Below are positions 50,036 to 61,575 of a stretch of DNA of 64,000 nt, in pieces. Source of the DNA: Kovacikia minuta CCNUW1 (GTDB lineage: Bacteria > Cyanobacteriota > Cyanobacteriia > Leptolyngbyales > Leptolyngbyaceae). Location of the stretch: NCBI RefSeq assembly GCF_020091585.1, contig NZ_CP083582.1, positions 6,086,536-6,150,535 of the forward strand, written 5' to 3'. Position numbers and translations under genes: made by a program. Below the pieces are notes generated by a model. The model was not told the origin of the DNA and did no database searches. It saw only the letters and a list, made by a program, of their open reading frames with translations. Numbering within the stretch: position 1 is the stretch's first letter; the number at the start of each line of letters is the position of its first letter.

Positions 50036-50542
50036 TTGAACAAGTCGGCTTTTAATGCATATGTCTGGTATCCAACGAAGCTCCAAAGCGTTAGCTGGTT
50101 TCGGGAAGAGTTTACTGCTCATCAAGAAAAGAAACTCGCCCAGCAGTTATTTGGTGTAACCCTCAATGAACCCATCATCCGCACCTATTCGGAATACCAG
50201 CAGCATCTTTTGCGCCGTTTAACCGAGGCATTTCAGCGCGAATCAGAAACCATTAGCGTCACTACCGTCATTTCCTCTCTGATTGGGTTACCCCATGAAG
50301 TCATTGAAGAACTGGTGCCCAAACGGATCAGCCTCAATCCAGGGCTGGAAACCTTTCTTTCAGACCCGTTTAGACTCACTTTTGAGGTAGAAATGCAGAA
50401 TGAAACCTTTCCCCTCATCGCCTGTCGGGAAACGGCTGCCATCATTACCGTTGAGTCAACCTCTTTCCAAACCTGGCTCCAGGCATGGCATACCCTCGAT
50501 GGGCTGAACAATCGCATCATTGATCTGGACCTGGATGAGTAG
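50036..50542 (+). CDS. Conserved-looking hypothetical protein
   Basis: I do not recognise a domain in these 168 residues. The composition is that of a soluble protein, with segments FREEFTAHQEKKLAQQLF and LIGLPHEVIEELVPKRISL, and an acidic C-terminus DLDLDE. The only plausible start is TTG. It is divergent from arsM. A long CCCCACA heptamer tract follows within 40 bases of the stop. Confidence 0.65.
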   Translation: MNKSAFNAYVWYPTKLQSVSWFREEFTAHQEKKLAQQLFGVTLNEPIIRTYSEYQQHLLRRLTEAFQRESETISVTTVISSLIGLPHEVIEELVPKRISLNPGLETFLSDPFRLTFEVEMQNETFPLIACRETAAIITVESTSFQTWLQAWHTLDGLNNRIIDLDLDE

Positions 50543-50577
50543 GGGAAGAGGACTTTTATCCTTTATTCTTTCCCCAT

Positions 50578-50694
50578 ACCACACACACACCCCAACCCCA
50601 CACCCCACACCCCACACCCCACATCCCCCAACCCACACCCCACACCCCACACCCCACACCCCACACCCCACACCCCACACCCCCACACCCCCCT
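50578..50694. repeat. (CCCCACA)n heptamer STRR
   Basis: About fifteen units of CCCCACA with a few variants (CCCCAAC, CCCACAT). It gives rise to several spurious open frames on both strands. Confidence 0.95.
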
Positions 50695-50806
50695 CTGCCC
50701 CCTCTCCAAAAAAAAAGCCCCGACCTTGCGAGCGGGGAAATTATGGAAACCAGGGTTCATGATACATGCGGTTAGGCAAAGCGAGTGAGGAATTTTGGAT
50801 GGGTGA

Positions 50807-51572: not shown

Positions 51573-52922
51573 GTGTACCCTCACCCCCTCAATCTTTTGC
51601 TGAACTCCCAACCGCCCACCCAAAACCTGAATTCTTTCGCTGCTGAAGTTGAGGATTTCCCCCATTTCATGCTGAAGGAAATCTACGAACAACCCGCAAC
51701 GATTCAAACCTGCCTGACAAAGTACCTCAACCCTCTCCAGTTTCCAGTTTCCAGCCTTCAGTCTCCAGTCTCCAGTCTTCAGTCTCCAGTCTCCAGTCTT
51801 CAGTCTCCAGTCTCCAGTCCTCAGTCTCCAGTTCCCCACACCCCACACCCCACACCCCATACCCCTATACTCCACACCCCAGCTTCAATTCAAAATTCAA
51901 AACTCAAAATTCAAAATTCTCCCCTCCCCACTTCCTACTCTTCCCCTCTGAACCAAATCCACATCCTCGCCTGTGGCACCAGTCGCCATGCAGGGTTGGT
52001 TGCCCAATACTGGTTTGAACAACTGGTGGGGGTTCCAACGCGGGTGCGATCGGCATCGGAGTTTGTTTCTGCGCCCCTGCCGCTGACATCAGAGACCCTG
52101 ACGATCGCCATTACCCAATCGGGGGAAACGGCGGATACGCTGGCAGCCGTGGAACGGCAGAAGGAACGCTACGCCGTACTGCCAATTACGCAGCCAAGGA
52201 TAATTGGAATTACCAATCATCCGGATAGTTCCCTGGCGAAGCAGGTTGATGGCACCTTGTCTACCTTGGCTGGGGCTGAAGTTGGGGTGGCTGCAACCAA
52301 AACGTTTACGGCTCAATTAGCGGTACTGGCTGGTTTGGCGCTGGATCTTGCCCATCAGTTCCAGACAATCAGGGATGAGGCGATGCCCCAGCTTCTGGCA
52401 GAGGTGAGATCGCTCCCGGATCTGATCGCAGCGATCCTGACGCAAGAGGGGAAATCAATCTCCGAACTTGCCGTGAAACTGGCAACCGCTAAGGACTGTA
52501 TCGTTTTGGGACAGGGGGTGAACCGGGCAATTGCCCTGGAAGGCGCATTAAAACTGAAGGAGACCACCTACATCCATGCGGAGGGTTATGCCGCAGGGGA
52601 GTTTTTGCATGGGCCGATCGCCCTGCTGGATTAGACGATTCCTGTCATTGCGATCGCGCCTGCGGATCAGACCTATCAGCAAATGCTGACAACGGTTCGG
52701 CGGGTGAAATCCCACGGTTCTCCGGTAATTGGAATTACAACTGCTGCCGCTGATCCAGAAGCCACACAGCTATTTGACGATCAAATTCTCCTCCCCACCA
52801 GCCATGAACTCCTGACCCCGTTTTTGAGTGTGATTCCTTTGCAATTGCTGGCATACCATACTGCGGTTCACAAAGGCTTGGATGTCGATCGCCCCAGGAA
52901 TATCACAAAAGTGGTGATCTAA
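51573..52922 (+). pseudogene. glmS-like remnant: SIS (isomerase) half only, with repeat insertion and nonsense codon
   Basis: Full GlmS makes glucosamine-6-phosphate. Here the glutaminase half is missing. What remains starts with the linker DFPHFMLKEIYEQPATIQTC, then 70 or so residues of translated repeats (SLQSPVS, HTPHPTP, SIQNSKLKIQNS units), then two SIS domains (ILACGTSRHAGL; ITQSGETADTLAA; VAATKTFTAQLAVL; GQGVNRAIALEGALKLKET). In-frame TAG at 52632 stands where GlmS has Glu (ALLD-stop-TIPVIAIAPADQ). The reading then continues to LDVDRPRNITKVVI, the normal GlmS end. This looks like a truly decayed gene. Confidence 0.82.
51736..51945. repeat. Composite STRR inside the glmS remnant
   Basis: About a dozen CAGTCTC/CAGTCTT units, then CCCCACA units, then CTTCAATTCAAAATTCAAA-type units, then C-rich sequence. 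All are read in frame. Confidence 0.92.
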
Positions 52923-53159
52923 TTGGCTCAATCTTTGCCTCTGGAATTGATCCTGTTCTGAGTCCTTCAACAAACTCATGAAAATTGTCATCAGAATGGC
53001 GATTCCCACAAACATCCAGAAGATATTGGGGAACTCGTCACCCACATCGCTTAGATAGCGCCACTCCCCACAGACTCTGCAATACTCGACCCCCTGCTTT
53101 TGGGGATGCGCCTCAACATGGCAAGGAGGCGTCATGCTCTTACTGTATGGACATTTCAT
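52770..53159 (-). CDS. Small Cys-rich membrane protein, hypothetical
   Basis: From MKCPYSKSMTPPCHVEAHP the product has two Cys pairs (KCPY, PPCH; EYCRVCGEW) that could bind zinc, and one membrane helix (IFWMFVGIAILMTIFMSLL). The C-terminal 45 residues are antisense to the glmS remnant and probably not original coding sequence. No function is known. The start was chosen at the Met before the first Cys. Confidence 0.45.
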   Translation of the reverse strand: MKCPYSKSMTPPCHVEAHPQKQGVEYCRVCGEWRYLSDVGDEFPNIFWMFVGIAILMTIFMSLLKDSEQDQFQRQRLSQLDHHFCDIPGAIDIQAFVNRSMVCQQLQRNHTQKRGQEFMAGGEENLIVK

Positions 53160-53588
53160 AGGACATCCAGGTAATTCAGTGTGGTTTACGAGATGAAGGA
53201 GCAATGGTGCCATTGCCCATGTAATTCTTTTGTATATCATATGTATTTCAAAAAATAGATGTATACAGTATTATGCGATACAAAATTTAAACCTGGAGTC
53301 ATACACAGTAAATAGATAAACTATTTTTAGTTGCTAGGGATAAACATCAGCACTTGTTGATTCAGGGATCGGGTTAATCTGATCTGTTTGAGTTAATGGC
53401 TCATAATGAGCTGAATTTGCACCACTAACCGTCCGGTTTGTATCCGTGTAACTGTCTGGTAGTAGGAAGTGTAAATAATTAATGAACTCAGCGATCGAAC
53501 TCCATTTCTGGGATCTAAGTCAGATACAATTGGTAGCCGTATGAGCTTTAATTCCATCAAATGTATAGCAGAACACTTTGAAGCCGAC
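53160..53588. other. AT-rich intergenic region upstream of the RHH gene
   Basis: It contains an AT-rich stretch with TATATCATATGTAT near 53236. No gene or clear promoter is visible. Confidence 0.4.
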
Positions 53589-54134
53589 ATGGATAGAAAA
53601 TCGGACAGAAAATTGGTCAGCTTCCGGCTACCCGAAAATCTGATGCAAGACCTTAGAGAACGGGCAGAGAGCGACAACATTTCGGTCACTGAACTTGTTT
53701 GTAGACTGTTGCGCCAGGGTTTACAAACGACGGTGGACGATCGCATCGCCAGCTTAGAGGCAGAAGTTCAGGAGCTAAGAAAACTGAAACAGGTCAACTT
53801 GGGTGGGATTGCTCCCGCTTCCATTTACACAATGGTTCCCCATAATGGCTTTGCAACAGAGGGGGATAGCGAAACGAAGCGTCGGGTTGCTGACCTGGAA
53901 TCCCGCATGGAGGAGGTTCTGTCTAGTGTTAGACATATCGGCGCTTTACCCACCTATCTTGCCAAACTAGAAACCTTGATCGAGGAGGTGCAAACCAACC
54001 AGGCTGCTGCTTACAATCGCTCGATTCATTCCCAGGAAGAAACCCTTTGTGAGGAGATTGACCAGAAAAAACGTGACCGGGCAACTGCCCAATCAACGAT
54101 TCAAAAGCCCAAGCCGTCCTCAAGTTCAGCATGA
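53589..54134 (+). CDS. Ribbon-helix-helix/coiled-coil protein (putative DNA-binding partner of PIN-LeuA gene)
   Basis: From MDRKSDRKLVSFRLPENLMQ the first 45 residues match an RHH/CopG-type fold (strand KLVSFRLP, helices LMQDLRERAESDNISVTELV). A coiled-coil region follows (RIASLEAEVQELRKLKQV, RRVADLESRMEEVLSSVR), then a polar tail. RHH proteins bind operators as dimers and are common antitoxins or repressors. The next gene, 96 bases downstream on the same strand, encodes a PIN/LeuA-type fusion, so the two may be an operon. An earlier ATG exists 16 codons upstream. Confidence 0.72.
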   Translation: MDRKSDRKLVSFRLPENLMQDLRERAESDNISVTELVCRLLRQGLQTTVDDRIASLEAEVQELRKLKQVNLGGIAPASIYTMVPHNGFATEGDSETKRRVADLESRMEEVLSSVRHIGALPTYLAKLETLIEEVQTNQAAAYNRSIHSQEETLCEEIDQKKRDRATAQSTIQKPKPSSSSA

Positions 54135-54229
54135 TCGTCTGAGGAATTGACCGAAACAAGAAGGTGCCAAATGCGTTTTTGACGTGATTGGGTTTGCTCC
54201 GGGGTTTGCATGATGTCCCAGAAGGTCTT

Positions 54230-55172
54230 ATGCGTAACGCCCTAATTACTGCAAATGTTTTCCAAAATGTATTTAAGGACATTTTAGGGAGACCTGATCT
54301 TTCCCCCAGGTACTATGCTGACCTGATTCGCCGTCTCGCTGATCAGCCCGTCACCTGGTACATGACAGCGCTTGATTATGCCACTGGCGTGTGCCTTCTG
54401 GGACATTTTCAGGTTGCGCGTCGATGAAGCCTGCCAGAAGGCATACTGGGACGTGCTGCAACTGGTTCGGGTGTGTCCCATTGACGAGTGGATTTTGGAG
54501 GAGTCGGGTTATTACTCCCCGATTAACTTTTGCGATGCGCTGCGACTTGCGACCGCTGTTGCCAACAACCTGGATGCGATCGTCACCTGGGAACCCCATC
54601 TATTTGTCCGCACGGTCAAAGAACACCACCAGTTTGAAAATAACTGGTATTTCTTTATCAACATCCCAACCCGCAGTGCAGAGCTGGATGATACGGCTGA
54701 ATGCAAGATTGGTGTATTTGCCGTTGGTGCTTTCTTGCTATCGCTGGATCAGGATGAGGAACGGCGATTTTTGGAATGGTCGCGGTTGCAGCATTTCTGT
54801 TTGGAACGGTGTGATCTGATCTGCACCGATACGCACGAAGCTTCGGTGATTTTGTGCGTACCCAGTGGTGAGCAATTGGCGGCAACTGCGATCGGCAACA
54901 GTCCATTTGATGCGATTCAAAGGGCAGTGGATCAGGTAGTCAGCCAATCCCATCCAGCTCTGCCCCCCCGCTATCTGAGCCGCTTTTTTGTCCCCCAGGC
55001 AACTTTATTTGGTGCCGATGCTCCTGTAGAAGTGGTGATTCGGGTGGAATGTGCCGGGGAAAGCTTCCAGGAATGCTCCAGTCACAGCAGCGTCTTTTGG
55101 GCTGCCGCCGATGCCTACGTGAAAGTGATTAACAAAATTTGCCGCTATCCCAATCTGCCGATCGTGGCGTGA
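54230..55172 (+). pseudogene. PIN-like domain fused to LeuA allosteric-type domain, single-base frameshift
   Basis: AGAAGG precedes the ATG. One base must be removed at GG 54386-54387 to join TWYMTALDYAT with CAFWDIFRLRVDEA, giving 313 residues. Residues 1-135 look PIN-like (NFCDALRLATAVANNLDAIV, TWEPHLF), but the N-terminal acidic residue of PIN nucleases is absent (ITANVF where DTNVF is usual). Residues about 200-305 resemble the isopropylmalate synthase regulatory domain: EASVILCVPSGEQL, GNSPFDAIQRAVDQVV, and the second repeat VEVVIRVECAGESFQ, WAAADAYVKVINKI. A ligand-sensing role is inferred. It follows an RHH gene. Confidence 0.72.
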
Positions 55173-59337: not shown

Positions 59338-61575
59338 ATGAAAGAAATCCTTTACATCGAAGTCCCTACCCCCGCAACTGAAAGCGTTCGAGCCTGGTTA
59401 CAGCAGGAATTTAACCCCTCTCTTGGTGAGAAAATTCCAGCTAGCAGCGGAATTCGGTTACAACTTCGCAAGCCTACAGCATCAGAACTGGCTATTTCTG
59501 AAAGTCAACCTGACTTATGTAACGAACTCTCAATATTTGTCTGGACTGTTCAACGCACCACCTATCTCAAGGTTTTTCGCTGGGCAGACCAACCCCTCCC
59601 CCAGGAGCCACAACTCCTGCACCATTTAACGACAGAAATTCGCGATCGCTTCCCCAATCAATATCCCCAACCTCCGGCGATCGATCCACACCAGTCGATT
59701 TTTGATGCGCTGATGGCGCAATACCCCCTCACTGTCCAGCACTTTCAAAAAATGCCGCATGGTGAATATGACCTGAGACGGGTCTACTGGTGGGAACAGC
59801 GCTGGCGGGAAGGCGTCAGGAATCCGCAGCAACCGAAGCAAGTGGTGTTTCGGAGGGATGAGGGCGCAGGGATAAGGGCAGAGGATGACGCGGAGATGCG
59901 GAGACACGGAGACACGGAGAATTCAATTCAAAATTCAAAATTCAAAATTCAAAATTCTCCCCCCACACCCCACACCCCACACCCCACACCCTCCTCCTAT
60001 GACCTGATCTACATCGGTGGTGCCCTGGGTGTCATCCATGCAGCTGTGATGGCCCGACTGGGTTACCGAGTGCTGCTGATTGAACGGTTACCCTTTGGCA
60101 GAATGAACCGGGAATGGAATATTTCCCGCAGTGAATTCCAATCCCTGATTGACCTGGGGTTATGTACTCCCGCTGAGTTTGAAAGCCTGATTGCACGAGA
60201 ATATATTGACGGGTTCCACAAATTTTTTGATGCCAACAACCCGCCCCAGTGTAAGGCTCCGATTTTGCACACACCGACCGTTTTGAATGTGGGGTTGGAT
60301 GCGGAGAAACTACTTCGGCTGTGTGGCGATAAACTGCGGCAAGCAGGGGGAGAAATTTGGGACGAGACAGAGTTTATTCGAGCAGACATCGACTCCGAGA
60401 AAGTGGTGGTTCAGTGCAACCATCTGACGACCCAGACATTGCGGTCAGCCAACGGGCGATTACTGGTGGATGCGATGGGAACCGCTTCCCCCATCGCCTG
60501 GCAACTGAACGGGGGACGGGCATTTGATAGTGTTTGCCCAACCGTGGGGGCGGTGGTTGCCAGTGGGTTTGAGCCAGGGGTTTGGGATGCCCGCTATGGG
60601 GATGTGTTGAACAGCCACGGAGATATTTCCAAGGGGCGGCAGTTAATCTGGGAACTTTTTCCGGCTGAGGGCGAAGAACTGACGATTTATCTGTTTCATT
60701 ACCACCAGGTTCACCCCGATAATCCCGGTTCCCTCTTAGAAATGTATGAAGACTTTTTTACAATTCTGCCGGAGTACCGCCGCTGCAATATGGACCAACT
60801 AGTCTGGAAAAAGCCTACATTTGGTTACATTCCAGGTCACTTCAGCGTCAGCGGGCGCGATCGCCAGGTTGCCTACGACCGCCTCATTTCGATCGGAGAT
60901 GCCGCTTCGCTCCAGTCCCCCCTCATCTTTACTGGATTTGGCTCTCTAGTCAGAAACCTGTCCCGGCTGACTCACCTTCTGGACACCGCACTCCGCCATG
61001 ACTTGCTGACCGCAACCCATTTGAATCAAATTCGTGCTTATCAGAGCAATGTTTCTGTCACCTGGCTGTTCTCGAAGGGCATGATGGTTCCCACTGGACG
61101 AAATATTCCTCCAGAGCGGGTTAACGCCATGCTGAACACGTTCTTTGGCATCCTGGCAGCGGAACCACCCGCCATCGCCGAAGCCTTTATTAAAGATCGG
61201 GTAGATTGGGTTTCATTCAACCGCATGGCGTTGAAGGCTGCCTGGCAAAACCCATCCCTGCTCCTGTGGATTTGGGATCTAGCCGGACCCGCCGATCTGC
61301 TGCGCTGGCTCCGCAGTTATCTTGACTTTACTTTAGGCGCATTTCTTAGTGCCCTACTCCATACCTGGTTCCCAGGTTTCCTCAGCCAGATCCAACCCTG
61401 GCTAGAACCCCGCTTTCCCTCCCTCTGGCTCTGGTTGCTTGCCCAAAACTACGCCTATACCGATGGGATCGGCAAAACAAAAGCCAGGGGAAGAGGTGAG
61501 CAGAAGGCAGAAGGCAGAGGGCAGAAGGCAAAAGGGGATGAGGGAGATGGGGAAGGGGAAGGGGTGAGGGGGTAG
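59338..61575 (+). CDS. cruA: Lycopene cyclase, CruA-type, with in-frame repeat insertion and repeat-encoded tail
   Basis: CruA cyclises lycopene toward gamma- and beta-carotene. The 745 residues have an N-terminal extension of about 175 typical of CruA, then the FAD-binding core: DLIYIGGALGVIHAAVMARL, ERLPFGRMNREWNISRSEF, VDAMGTASPIAW, and ISIGDAASLQSPLIFTGFG. Between the extension and FAD domain, about 45 residues (RRHGDTEN, SIQNSKFKIQNS, PHTPHPTP) are translated repeats. The C-terminal 35 or so residues (KAEGRGQKAKGDEGDGEGEG) come from GGCAGAA-type repeats, so the stop is also repeat-derived. The related CruP is an alternative call. Confidence 0.82.
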   Translation: MKEILYIEVPTPATESVRAWLQQEFNPSLGEKIPASSGIRLQLRKPTASELAISESQPDLCNELSIFVWTVQRTTYLKVFRWADQPLPQEPQLLHHLTTEIRDRFPNQYPQPPAIDPHQSIFDALMAQYPLTVQHFQKMPHGEYDLRRVYWWEQRWREGVRNPQQPKQVVFRRDEGAGIRAEDDAEMRRHGDTENSIQNSKFKIQNSPPTPHTPHPTPSSYDLIYIGGALGVIHAAVMARLGYRVLLIERLPFGRMNREWNISRSEFQSLIDLGLCTPAEFESLIAREYIDGFHKFFDANNPPQCKAPILHTPTVLNVGLDAEKLLRLCGDKLRQAGGEIWDETEFIRADIDSEKVVVQCNHLTTQTLRSANGRLLVDAMGTASPIAWQLNGGRAFDSVCPTVGAVVASGFEPGVWDARYGDVLNSHGDISKGRQLIWELFPAEGEELTIYLFHYHQVHPDNPGSLLEMYEDFFTILPEYRRCNMDQLVWKKPTFGYIPGHFSVSGRDRQVAYDRLISIGDAASLQSPLIFTGFGSLVRNLSRLTHLLDTALRHDLLTATHLNQIRAYQSNVSVTWLFSKGMMVPTGRNIPPERVNAMLNTFFGILAAEPPAIAEAFIKDRVDWVSFNRMALKAAWQNPSLLLWIWDLAGPADLLRWLRSYLDFTLGAFLSALLHTWFPGFLSQIQPWLEPRFPSLWLWLLAQNYAYTDGIGKTKARGRGEQKAEGRGQKAKGDEGDGEGEGVRG
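59870..59996. repeat. Composite STRR inside cruA
   Basis: A purine-rich part with GGAGACACGGAGACACGGAG is followed by four ATTCAAA units and four CCCCACA units. The frame is kept open through all of it. Confidence 0.95.

What the first reader, a model, noticed from the sequence alone, without database searches (positions are those of the whole stretch)
53589..55172. RHH protein followed by a PIN-like/LeuA-regulatory-domain fusion: candidate undescribed ligand-responsive system
A putative DNA-binding RHH/coiled-coil protein precedes a protein that appears to join a PIN-like domain lacking its first metal-binding Asp to a domain resembling the leucine-sensing domain of isopropylmalate synthase, with no synthase barrel. 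RHH plus PIN resembles a VapBC-type pair, but the degenerate PIN site and the allosteric domain point to a metabolite sensor acting with a repressor.
Basis: inference. Interest (0 to 1): 0.7.

Follow-up and report, generated by a model that had tools for sequence, protein, structure and literature searches.

The report
RHH–PIN–LeuA sensor cassette in cyanobacteria
Next to a small DNA-binding protein, some cyanobacteria carry a conserved fusion of an apparently disarmed toxin-type (PIN) domain with the leucine-sensing domain of a leucine-biosynthesis enzyme; the pair looks like a toxin–antitoxin-derived, possibly amino-acid-responsive repressor that controls its own operon and a neighbouring membrane-protein gene.

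Summary
Window 53589-54134 encodes a ribbon-helix-helix (RHH) protein; 54230-55172 encodes a PIN–LeuA-regulatory-domain fusion, split here by a one-base frameshift but intact as one ORF in most relatives. The model (pLDDT 83) gives a VapC-like PIN fold (Z 10.4) joined to an isoleucine/leucine-binding regulatory fold (Z 15.4). The first catalytic Asp of the PIN domain is Thr (once Cys) in every copy aligned, while the other three acids are kept. The RHH gene lies 31-291 bp upstream in all 16 loci measured; the two genes co-occur (p = 3e-10) and co-diverge (r = 0.84). New here: a divergent small Cys-rich membrane-protein gene (8 of 11 fusion genomes, 0 of 47 others) and 11-bp-spaced TGTATATC repeats between the divergent genes. 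The tandem pattern occurs once in the 8.56-Mb genome, at this locus. Best reading: a VapBC/FitAB-derived autorepressor with a pseudo-PIN co-repressor and a LeuA-type sensor. Ligand binding, RNase loss, complex formation and DNA binding are inferred. It was found only in cyanobacteria, is patchy and apparently vertically inherited with repeated loss; the window copy may be decaying. No published description was found in the papers searched.

The parts
52770..53159 (-). Divergent small protein gene: N-terminal Cys/His pattern (CP..C..HP..YC..C, zinc-ribbon-like) followed by one hydrophobic, probably membrane-spanning segment; C-terminal part of this ORF overlaps the end of glmS and is not conserved
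   Evidence: Aligned in 9 loci with invariant C3, C13, H18, C27, C30; in 8 of 11 fusion genomes and 0 of 47 others
53231..53249 (+). Operator-like tandem repeat TGTATATC-ATA-TGTATTTC, half-sites 11 bp apart, in the divergent intergenic region
   Evidence: Only match (up to 1 mismatch) in the 8.56-Mb genome; half-site enrichment and 11-bp spacing across loci
53589..54134 (+). RHH (CopG/Arc-like) DNA-binding protein with long C-terminal helices
   Evidence: directly upstream of the fusion in all 16 loci measured
54230..55172 (+). PIN–LeuA regulatory domain fusion gene; one-base frameshift at about 54377-54382 in the window, intact copies exist in relatives
54230..54650 (+). PIN (VapC-like) domain; Thr at 54248-54250 in place of the first catalytic Asp; Asp (54534-54536) and Glu (54591-54593) retained
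   Evidence: Structure matches, profile comparison, alignment
54789..55139 (+). LeuA allosteric (regulatory) domain, PF08502
   Evidence: Pfam 37.3 bits, cut-off 24.9; 3f6h Z 15.4 for the relative's model

Best explanation
A vertically inherited, dispensable cyanobacterial cassette derived from a VapBC/FitAB-type locus. The RHH protein binds 11-bp-spaced TGTATATC repeats in the divergent promoter region and represses its own operon and the divergent Cys-rich membrane-protein gene. The fusion protein acts as co-repressor: its PIN domain, disarmed by loss of the first metal-binding Asp, binds the C-terminal helices of the RHH protein as VapC/FitB bind VapB/FitA, and its LeuA-type domain dimerises the complex and binds a small metabolite (a branched-chain amino acid or 2-oxo acid most likely) that tunes DNA binding. 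Shown by computation: gene pair, folds, loss of the Asp, operator-like repeats, co-occurrence, purifying selection. Inferred: complex formation, DNA binding, loss of RNase activity, the ligand and its identity, and the direction of regulation.
For: Fusion and fold: PF08502 in the window and all 14 relatives; AF2 model with VapC (Z 10.4) and LiCMS/LeuA regulatory (Z 15.4) folds; PIN_3 profile match. Asp lost throughout, other acids kept. RHH gene 31-291 bp upstream in all 16 loci measured, 11 of 11 genomes with the fusion versus 2 of 47 without, p 3e-10; distance correlation r 0.84. Half-sites 45 observed vs 1.7 expected, 46 in 9.5 kb vs 8 in 99.7 kb, 11-bp spacing, one genomic match in G000, all seven perfect matches in 17 genomes at the locus. 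Hydrophobic pocket positions partly conserved. dN far below dS in both genes.
Against: No experiment. The LeuA loop GTGPVDA is altered, so ligand binding may be lost. Three PIN acids are kept, which would be unexpected if only a binding scaffold remained. The tandem pattern is not at the locus in G001, G037, G262, G198 and G239, and L070 has no half-sites. The motif was read off the same loci. pTM of the fusion is only 0.54, so the domain arrangement is unknown.
Confidence: 0.5

Rival explanations
1. A working toxin-antitoxin system: the PIN domain is still a ribonuclease with an altered metal site, neutralised by the RHH antitoxin, and the LeuA-type domain gates toxicity according to amino-acid supply.
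For: Asp45, Asp98 and Glu117 stay invariant or nearly so across distant copies; gene order antitoxin-then-toxin and autoregulatory-type repeats are VapBC-like.
Against: The first of the four acids that PIN catalysis requires (PMC3384007) is Thr/Cys in every copy, and a second Asp invariant in PIN_3 relatives is Asn. The RHH protein is longer (about 80-190 aa, mostly 130-180) than typical antitoxins.
Confidence: 0.2
2. Same repressor complex, but the LeuA-type domain is only a dimerisation module and binds no ligand.
For: PF08502 is itself a dimerisation domain; the GTGPVDA loop and NTDI motif are altered in the fusions.
Against: Leu/Ile/Met at L451, an aromatic residue at Y454 in most, and V468/E469 are largely kept; purifying selection on this half is as strong as on the PIN half.
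Confidence: 0.2
3. The divergent Cys-rich membrane protein is the effector (for example a stress or toxic membrane protein) and the RHH/fusion pair exists to keep it silent.
For: That gene was found only in genomes with the fusion (8 of 11 vs 0 of 47); the repeats lie about 70-100 bp upstream of its start in the window and L002.
Against: Not detected in G001, G008 and G037, which have the pair; no known family for it and no PADLOC hit.
Confidence: 0.07

Closest known systems
FitAB / VapBC type II toxin-antitoxin with RHH antitoxin (N. gonorrhoeae FitAB; M. tuberculosis Rv0300-Rv0301, 3h87)
   Same: RHH protein gene directly followed by a PIN protein gene; PIN fold matches VapC; repeats upstream as expected for autoregulation
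   Different: PIN lacks the first catalytic Asp; PIN carries a C-terminal LeuA regulatory domain; long RHH C-terminus; third divergent gene
Regulatory domain of 2-isopropylmalate synthase (LeuA) / citramalate synthase (LiCMS, 3f6g, 3f6h)
   Same: Fold (Z 15.4, 2.5 A), PF08502, several pocket positions
   Different: No catalytic barrel; GxGPVDA and NTDI motifs altered; attached to a PIN domain
PIN_3 (PF13470) VapC-like proteins of related cyanobacteria
   Same: Nearest PIN relatives by profile
   Different: They are 137-199-aa single-domain ORFs with the canonical D-T-N motif and lack the LeuA domain
Ligand-responsive RHH regulators such as NikR and PutA
   Same: Logic of an RHH module coupled to a small-molecule domain; both appear in the RHH match list
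   Different: Here the proposed sensor sits on a separate protein linked through a PIN domain

Membership tests
VapBC/FitAB type II toxin-antitoxin | PIN fold in the second gene's product | tested here: met
VapBC/FitAB type II toxin-antitoxin | Four conserved acidic catalytic residues | tested here: not met
   First Asp is Thr (Cys in L013) in all copies aligned; other three kept; four acids required per PMC3384007
VapBC/FitAB type II toxin-antitoxin | DNA-binding partner gene immediately upstream | tested here: met
   All 16 loci measured, gap 31-291 bp
VapBC/FitAB type II toxin-antitoxin | Autoregulatory operator upstream | tested here: inconclusive
   Locus-confined repeats but no binding shown
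VapBC/FitAB type II toxin-antitoxin | Toxicity and neutralisation | not testable with these tools
   Needs expression experiments
LeuA allosteric domain PF08502 | Pfam gathering score | tested here: met
   37.3 bits vs 24.9
LeuA allosteric domain PF08502 | Leucine/isoleucine pocket residues | tested here: inconclusive
   Partly conserved; site residues of LiCMS recalled from memory
2-isopropylmalate synthase | HMGL-like catalytic barrel | tested here: not met
   Single ORFs of about 290-360 aa made of PIN + regulatory domain
RHH/CopG superfamily | beta-alpha-alpha fold and sequence signature | tested here: inconclusive
   Conserved KLVSFRLPEDL..TEL core; RHH structures dominate the match list but Z is at most 5.4 and Foldseek E at best 0.2; the monomer model shows the two helices but no assigned strand; Pfam below cut-off

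The most novel reading that the evidence does not exclude
A previously undescribed metabolite-gated regulatory system in which a toxin-antitoxin pair was converted into a sensor: a pseudo-PIN co-repressor carrying the leucine/isoleucine-sensing domain controls an RHH repressor and a dedicated membrane-protein gene in response to branched-chain amino-acid status.
Probability: 0.35. Interest if true: 0.8.

Novelty: new variant of a known kind. Interest (0 to 1): 0.6.

Why it matters
It would be an example of a type II toxin-antitoxin pair turned into a metabolite-responsive transcription switch, with a biosynthetic enzyme's allosteric domain reused on a non-enzyme. It offers a small testable system (two or three genes, a candidate operator, a short list of ligands) for how toxin-antitoxin complexes evolve into ordinary regulators.

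Tried and rejected
Chance or artefact fusion: rejected; intact single ORFs in several cyanobacterial families. Frameshift as a programmed feature: rejected; among the copies examined only the window has it. Mobile or viral cargo: no relatives in viral contigs or plasmids; a deletion scar next to glmS in G015 and the shared glmS neighbourhood in L060/L062 favour vertical inheritance with loss. Defence system: no PADLOC hit to the fusion or the small protein, only a weak one to the RHH protein. Global regulon: in the own genome the tandem pattern is found nowhere else. Literature: no paper in the held library joins LeuA_dimer/PF08502 or isopropylmalate synthase with PIN/RHH; the library lacks most subscription journals. 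Gave little: phmmer of one fusion protein against PDB (no hits); Foldseek of the RHH model (weak); a paper listing the LiCMS isoleucine site was not found, so those residues are from memory. A first residue mapping without LeuA sequences put an invariant Arg in the pocket; it did not survive the better alignment. A four-letter-word reading of the frameshift misread later codons and was discarded.

Full report
OBSERVATION. The window lies in a cyanobacterial genome (G000, 8.56 Mb, 3 contigs; its named relatives are mostly Leptolyngbya-like). An RHH-type ORF runs 53541-54134 with the conserved start at 53589; the next gene starts at 54230 and ends at 55172, but is split into two overlapping frames by a one-base frameshift at about 54377-54382. 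The second frame matches PF08502 LeuA_dimer above its gathering score. Relatives encode the same protein as one ORF: 10 in the first 58 genomes searched (the G022 copy lacks its 3' end), 18 of 390 genomes sampled in the class if the window and the truncated copies are counted, and 13 named loci in a scan of one genome per species for 84,980 species, all cyanobacterial (that scan rests on two peptide patterns).

FOLD. AF2 of the L059 protein with 14 rows gives pLDDT 82.9 and pTM 0.54, so the placement of the two domains relative to each other is uncertain. Residues 185-305 match the isoleucine-bound regulatory domain of Leptospira citramalate synthase (3f6h, Z 15.4, 2.5 A, 117 residues) and M. 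tuberculosis LeuA (Z about 11.6); residues 1-163 match VapC proteins (7by3, Z 10.4). Profile comparison with PIN_3/VapC-like proteins of related cyanobacteria gives 98% probability, E 2e-13, and aligns their D-T-N motif with T-A-N of the fusion. The first Asp is Thr in every copy aligned except Cys in the most distant (L013); Asp45, Asp98 and Glu117 (L059 numbering) are invariant or nearly so. PIN catalysis needs four acids (PMC3384007), so loss of RNase activity is likely but not shown.

PARTNER. The RHH gene lies directly upstream on the same strand in all 16 loci measured, 31-291 bp away. Among 58 genomes it is in 11 of 11 with the fusion and in 2 of 47 without (Fisher p 3e-10); of these two, G015 holds a remnant of the fusion on another contig and G016 is a weak hit. 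Protein distances of the two genes correlate at r 0.84, with 0 of 5000 permutations as high; shared descent of the hosts contributes to this. Both genes show dN far below dS, including both halves of the window fusion against L002. AF2 of the window RHH protein gives two short helices and then long helices; RHH repressors (Arc, CopG, AtaR, NikR, PutA) dominate the match list but with low Z, 5.4 or less.

THIRD GENE AND OPERATOR-LIKE REPEATS (not in the finding). A divergent gene (window 52770-53159, minus strand) encodes a small protein with an invariant C-C-H-C-C pattern and a hydrophobic segment; it is in 8 of 11 fusion genomes and 0 of 47 others. The DNA upstream of the RHH gene holds TGTATATC/A-type half-sites: 45 versus 1.7 expected in 16 regions, and 46 in 9.5 kb versus 8 in 99.7 kb of the rest of 17 loci, with a spacing peak at 11 bp, the spacing of half-sites in operators of some RHH repressors such as Arc (my knowledge). 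The 19-bp tandem pattern, with up to one mismatch, occurs once in G000, at window 53231-53249. In 17 genomes (about 103 Mb) all seven perfect matches are at the locus. Because I read the pattern off these loci, matches at the locus are partly by construction; the rarity elsewhere is the informative part. Two loci looked at afterwards gave 4 half-sites (L048, clear) and 1 (L063, not significant). L070 has none, and in G001, G037, G262, G198 and G239 the tandem pattern is not at the locus.

LIGAND. Aligned with LiCMS and 23 cyanobacterial LeuA domains, the fusions keep Leu/Ile/Met at L451, an aromatic residue at Y454 in most, Val at V468 in most and Glu/Asp at E469, but change the GTGPVDA loop to Gx[S/T]PxDA and also the NTDI motif. 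The LiCMS site residues are from memory. A small hydrophobic amino or oxo acid is plausible; nothing here proves a ligand.

EVOLUTION. The cassette is patchy and often damaged: a frameshift in the window, a 3' truncation followed by a transposase-like ORF in G022 (L010), an ORF ending after the PIN domain in G198 (L048), and in G015 a scar in which glmS is followed directly by about the last 30 codons of the fusion. glmS also precedes the cassette in L060 and L062. No relatives were found in viral contigs or plasmids. This points to vertical inheritance with repeated loss. The window copy may be recently broken, or the break may be an assembly error; the neighbouring glmS copy also has an in-frame stop, while a second, intact glmS lies elsewhere in the genome.

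VERDICT. It works like a VapBC/FitAB-type autoregulatory complex but I do not file it as a member, since the four-acid criterion fails. With the LeuA-type domain it is a new variant of a known kind.

Noticed in passing
window 51573-52922 (+): glmS-like gene upstream of the cassette has an in-frame TAG (52632-52634) and a repeat-rich insertion near its start; a second, intact GlmS ORF (691 aa) lies at G000:C1:3817190.
   Followed up: partly
L123:1571-1716 (G015:C318): Deletion scar: glmS is followed directly by about the last 30 codons of the PIN–LeuA fusion.
   Followed up: yes
L010:2194-3570 (G022): The fusion gene loses its 3' end where a transposase-like ORF follows.
   Followed up: no
L048:1480-2100 (G198): Copy that ends after the PIN domain (207-aa open frame) with Asn in place of the conserved Asp98; RHH gene still upstream.
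   Followed up: partly
L004-L009, downstream of the fusion: A fructosamine-kinase-like gene lies convergent next to the cassette in several relatives; together with glmS this hints at an amino-sugar neighbourhood, or just synteny.
   Followed up: no
L122:1694-2002 (G015:C100): A solitary RHH paralogue without a PIN–LeuA partner in a genome that lost the cassette.
   Followed up: no
window 50520-50762: Short tandem repeats read as (HTPHPTP)n, also seen near 51700-51850 and inside the 59338-61575 ORF; likely a dispersed repeat.
   Followed up: no
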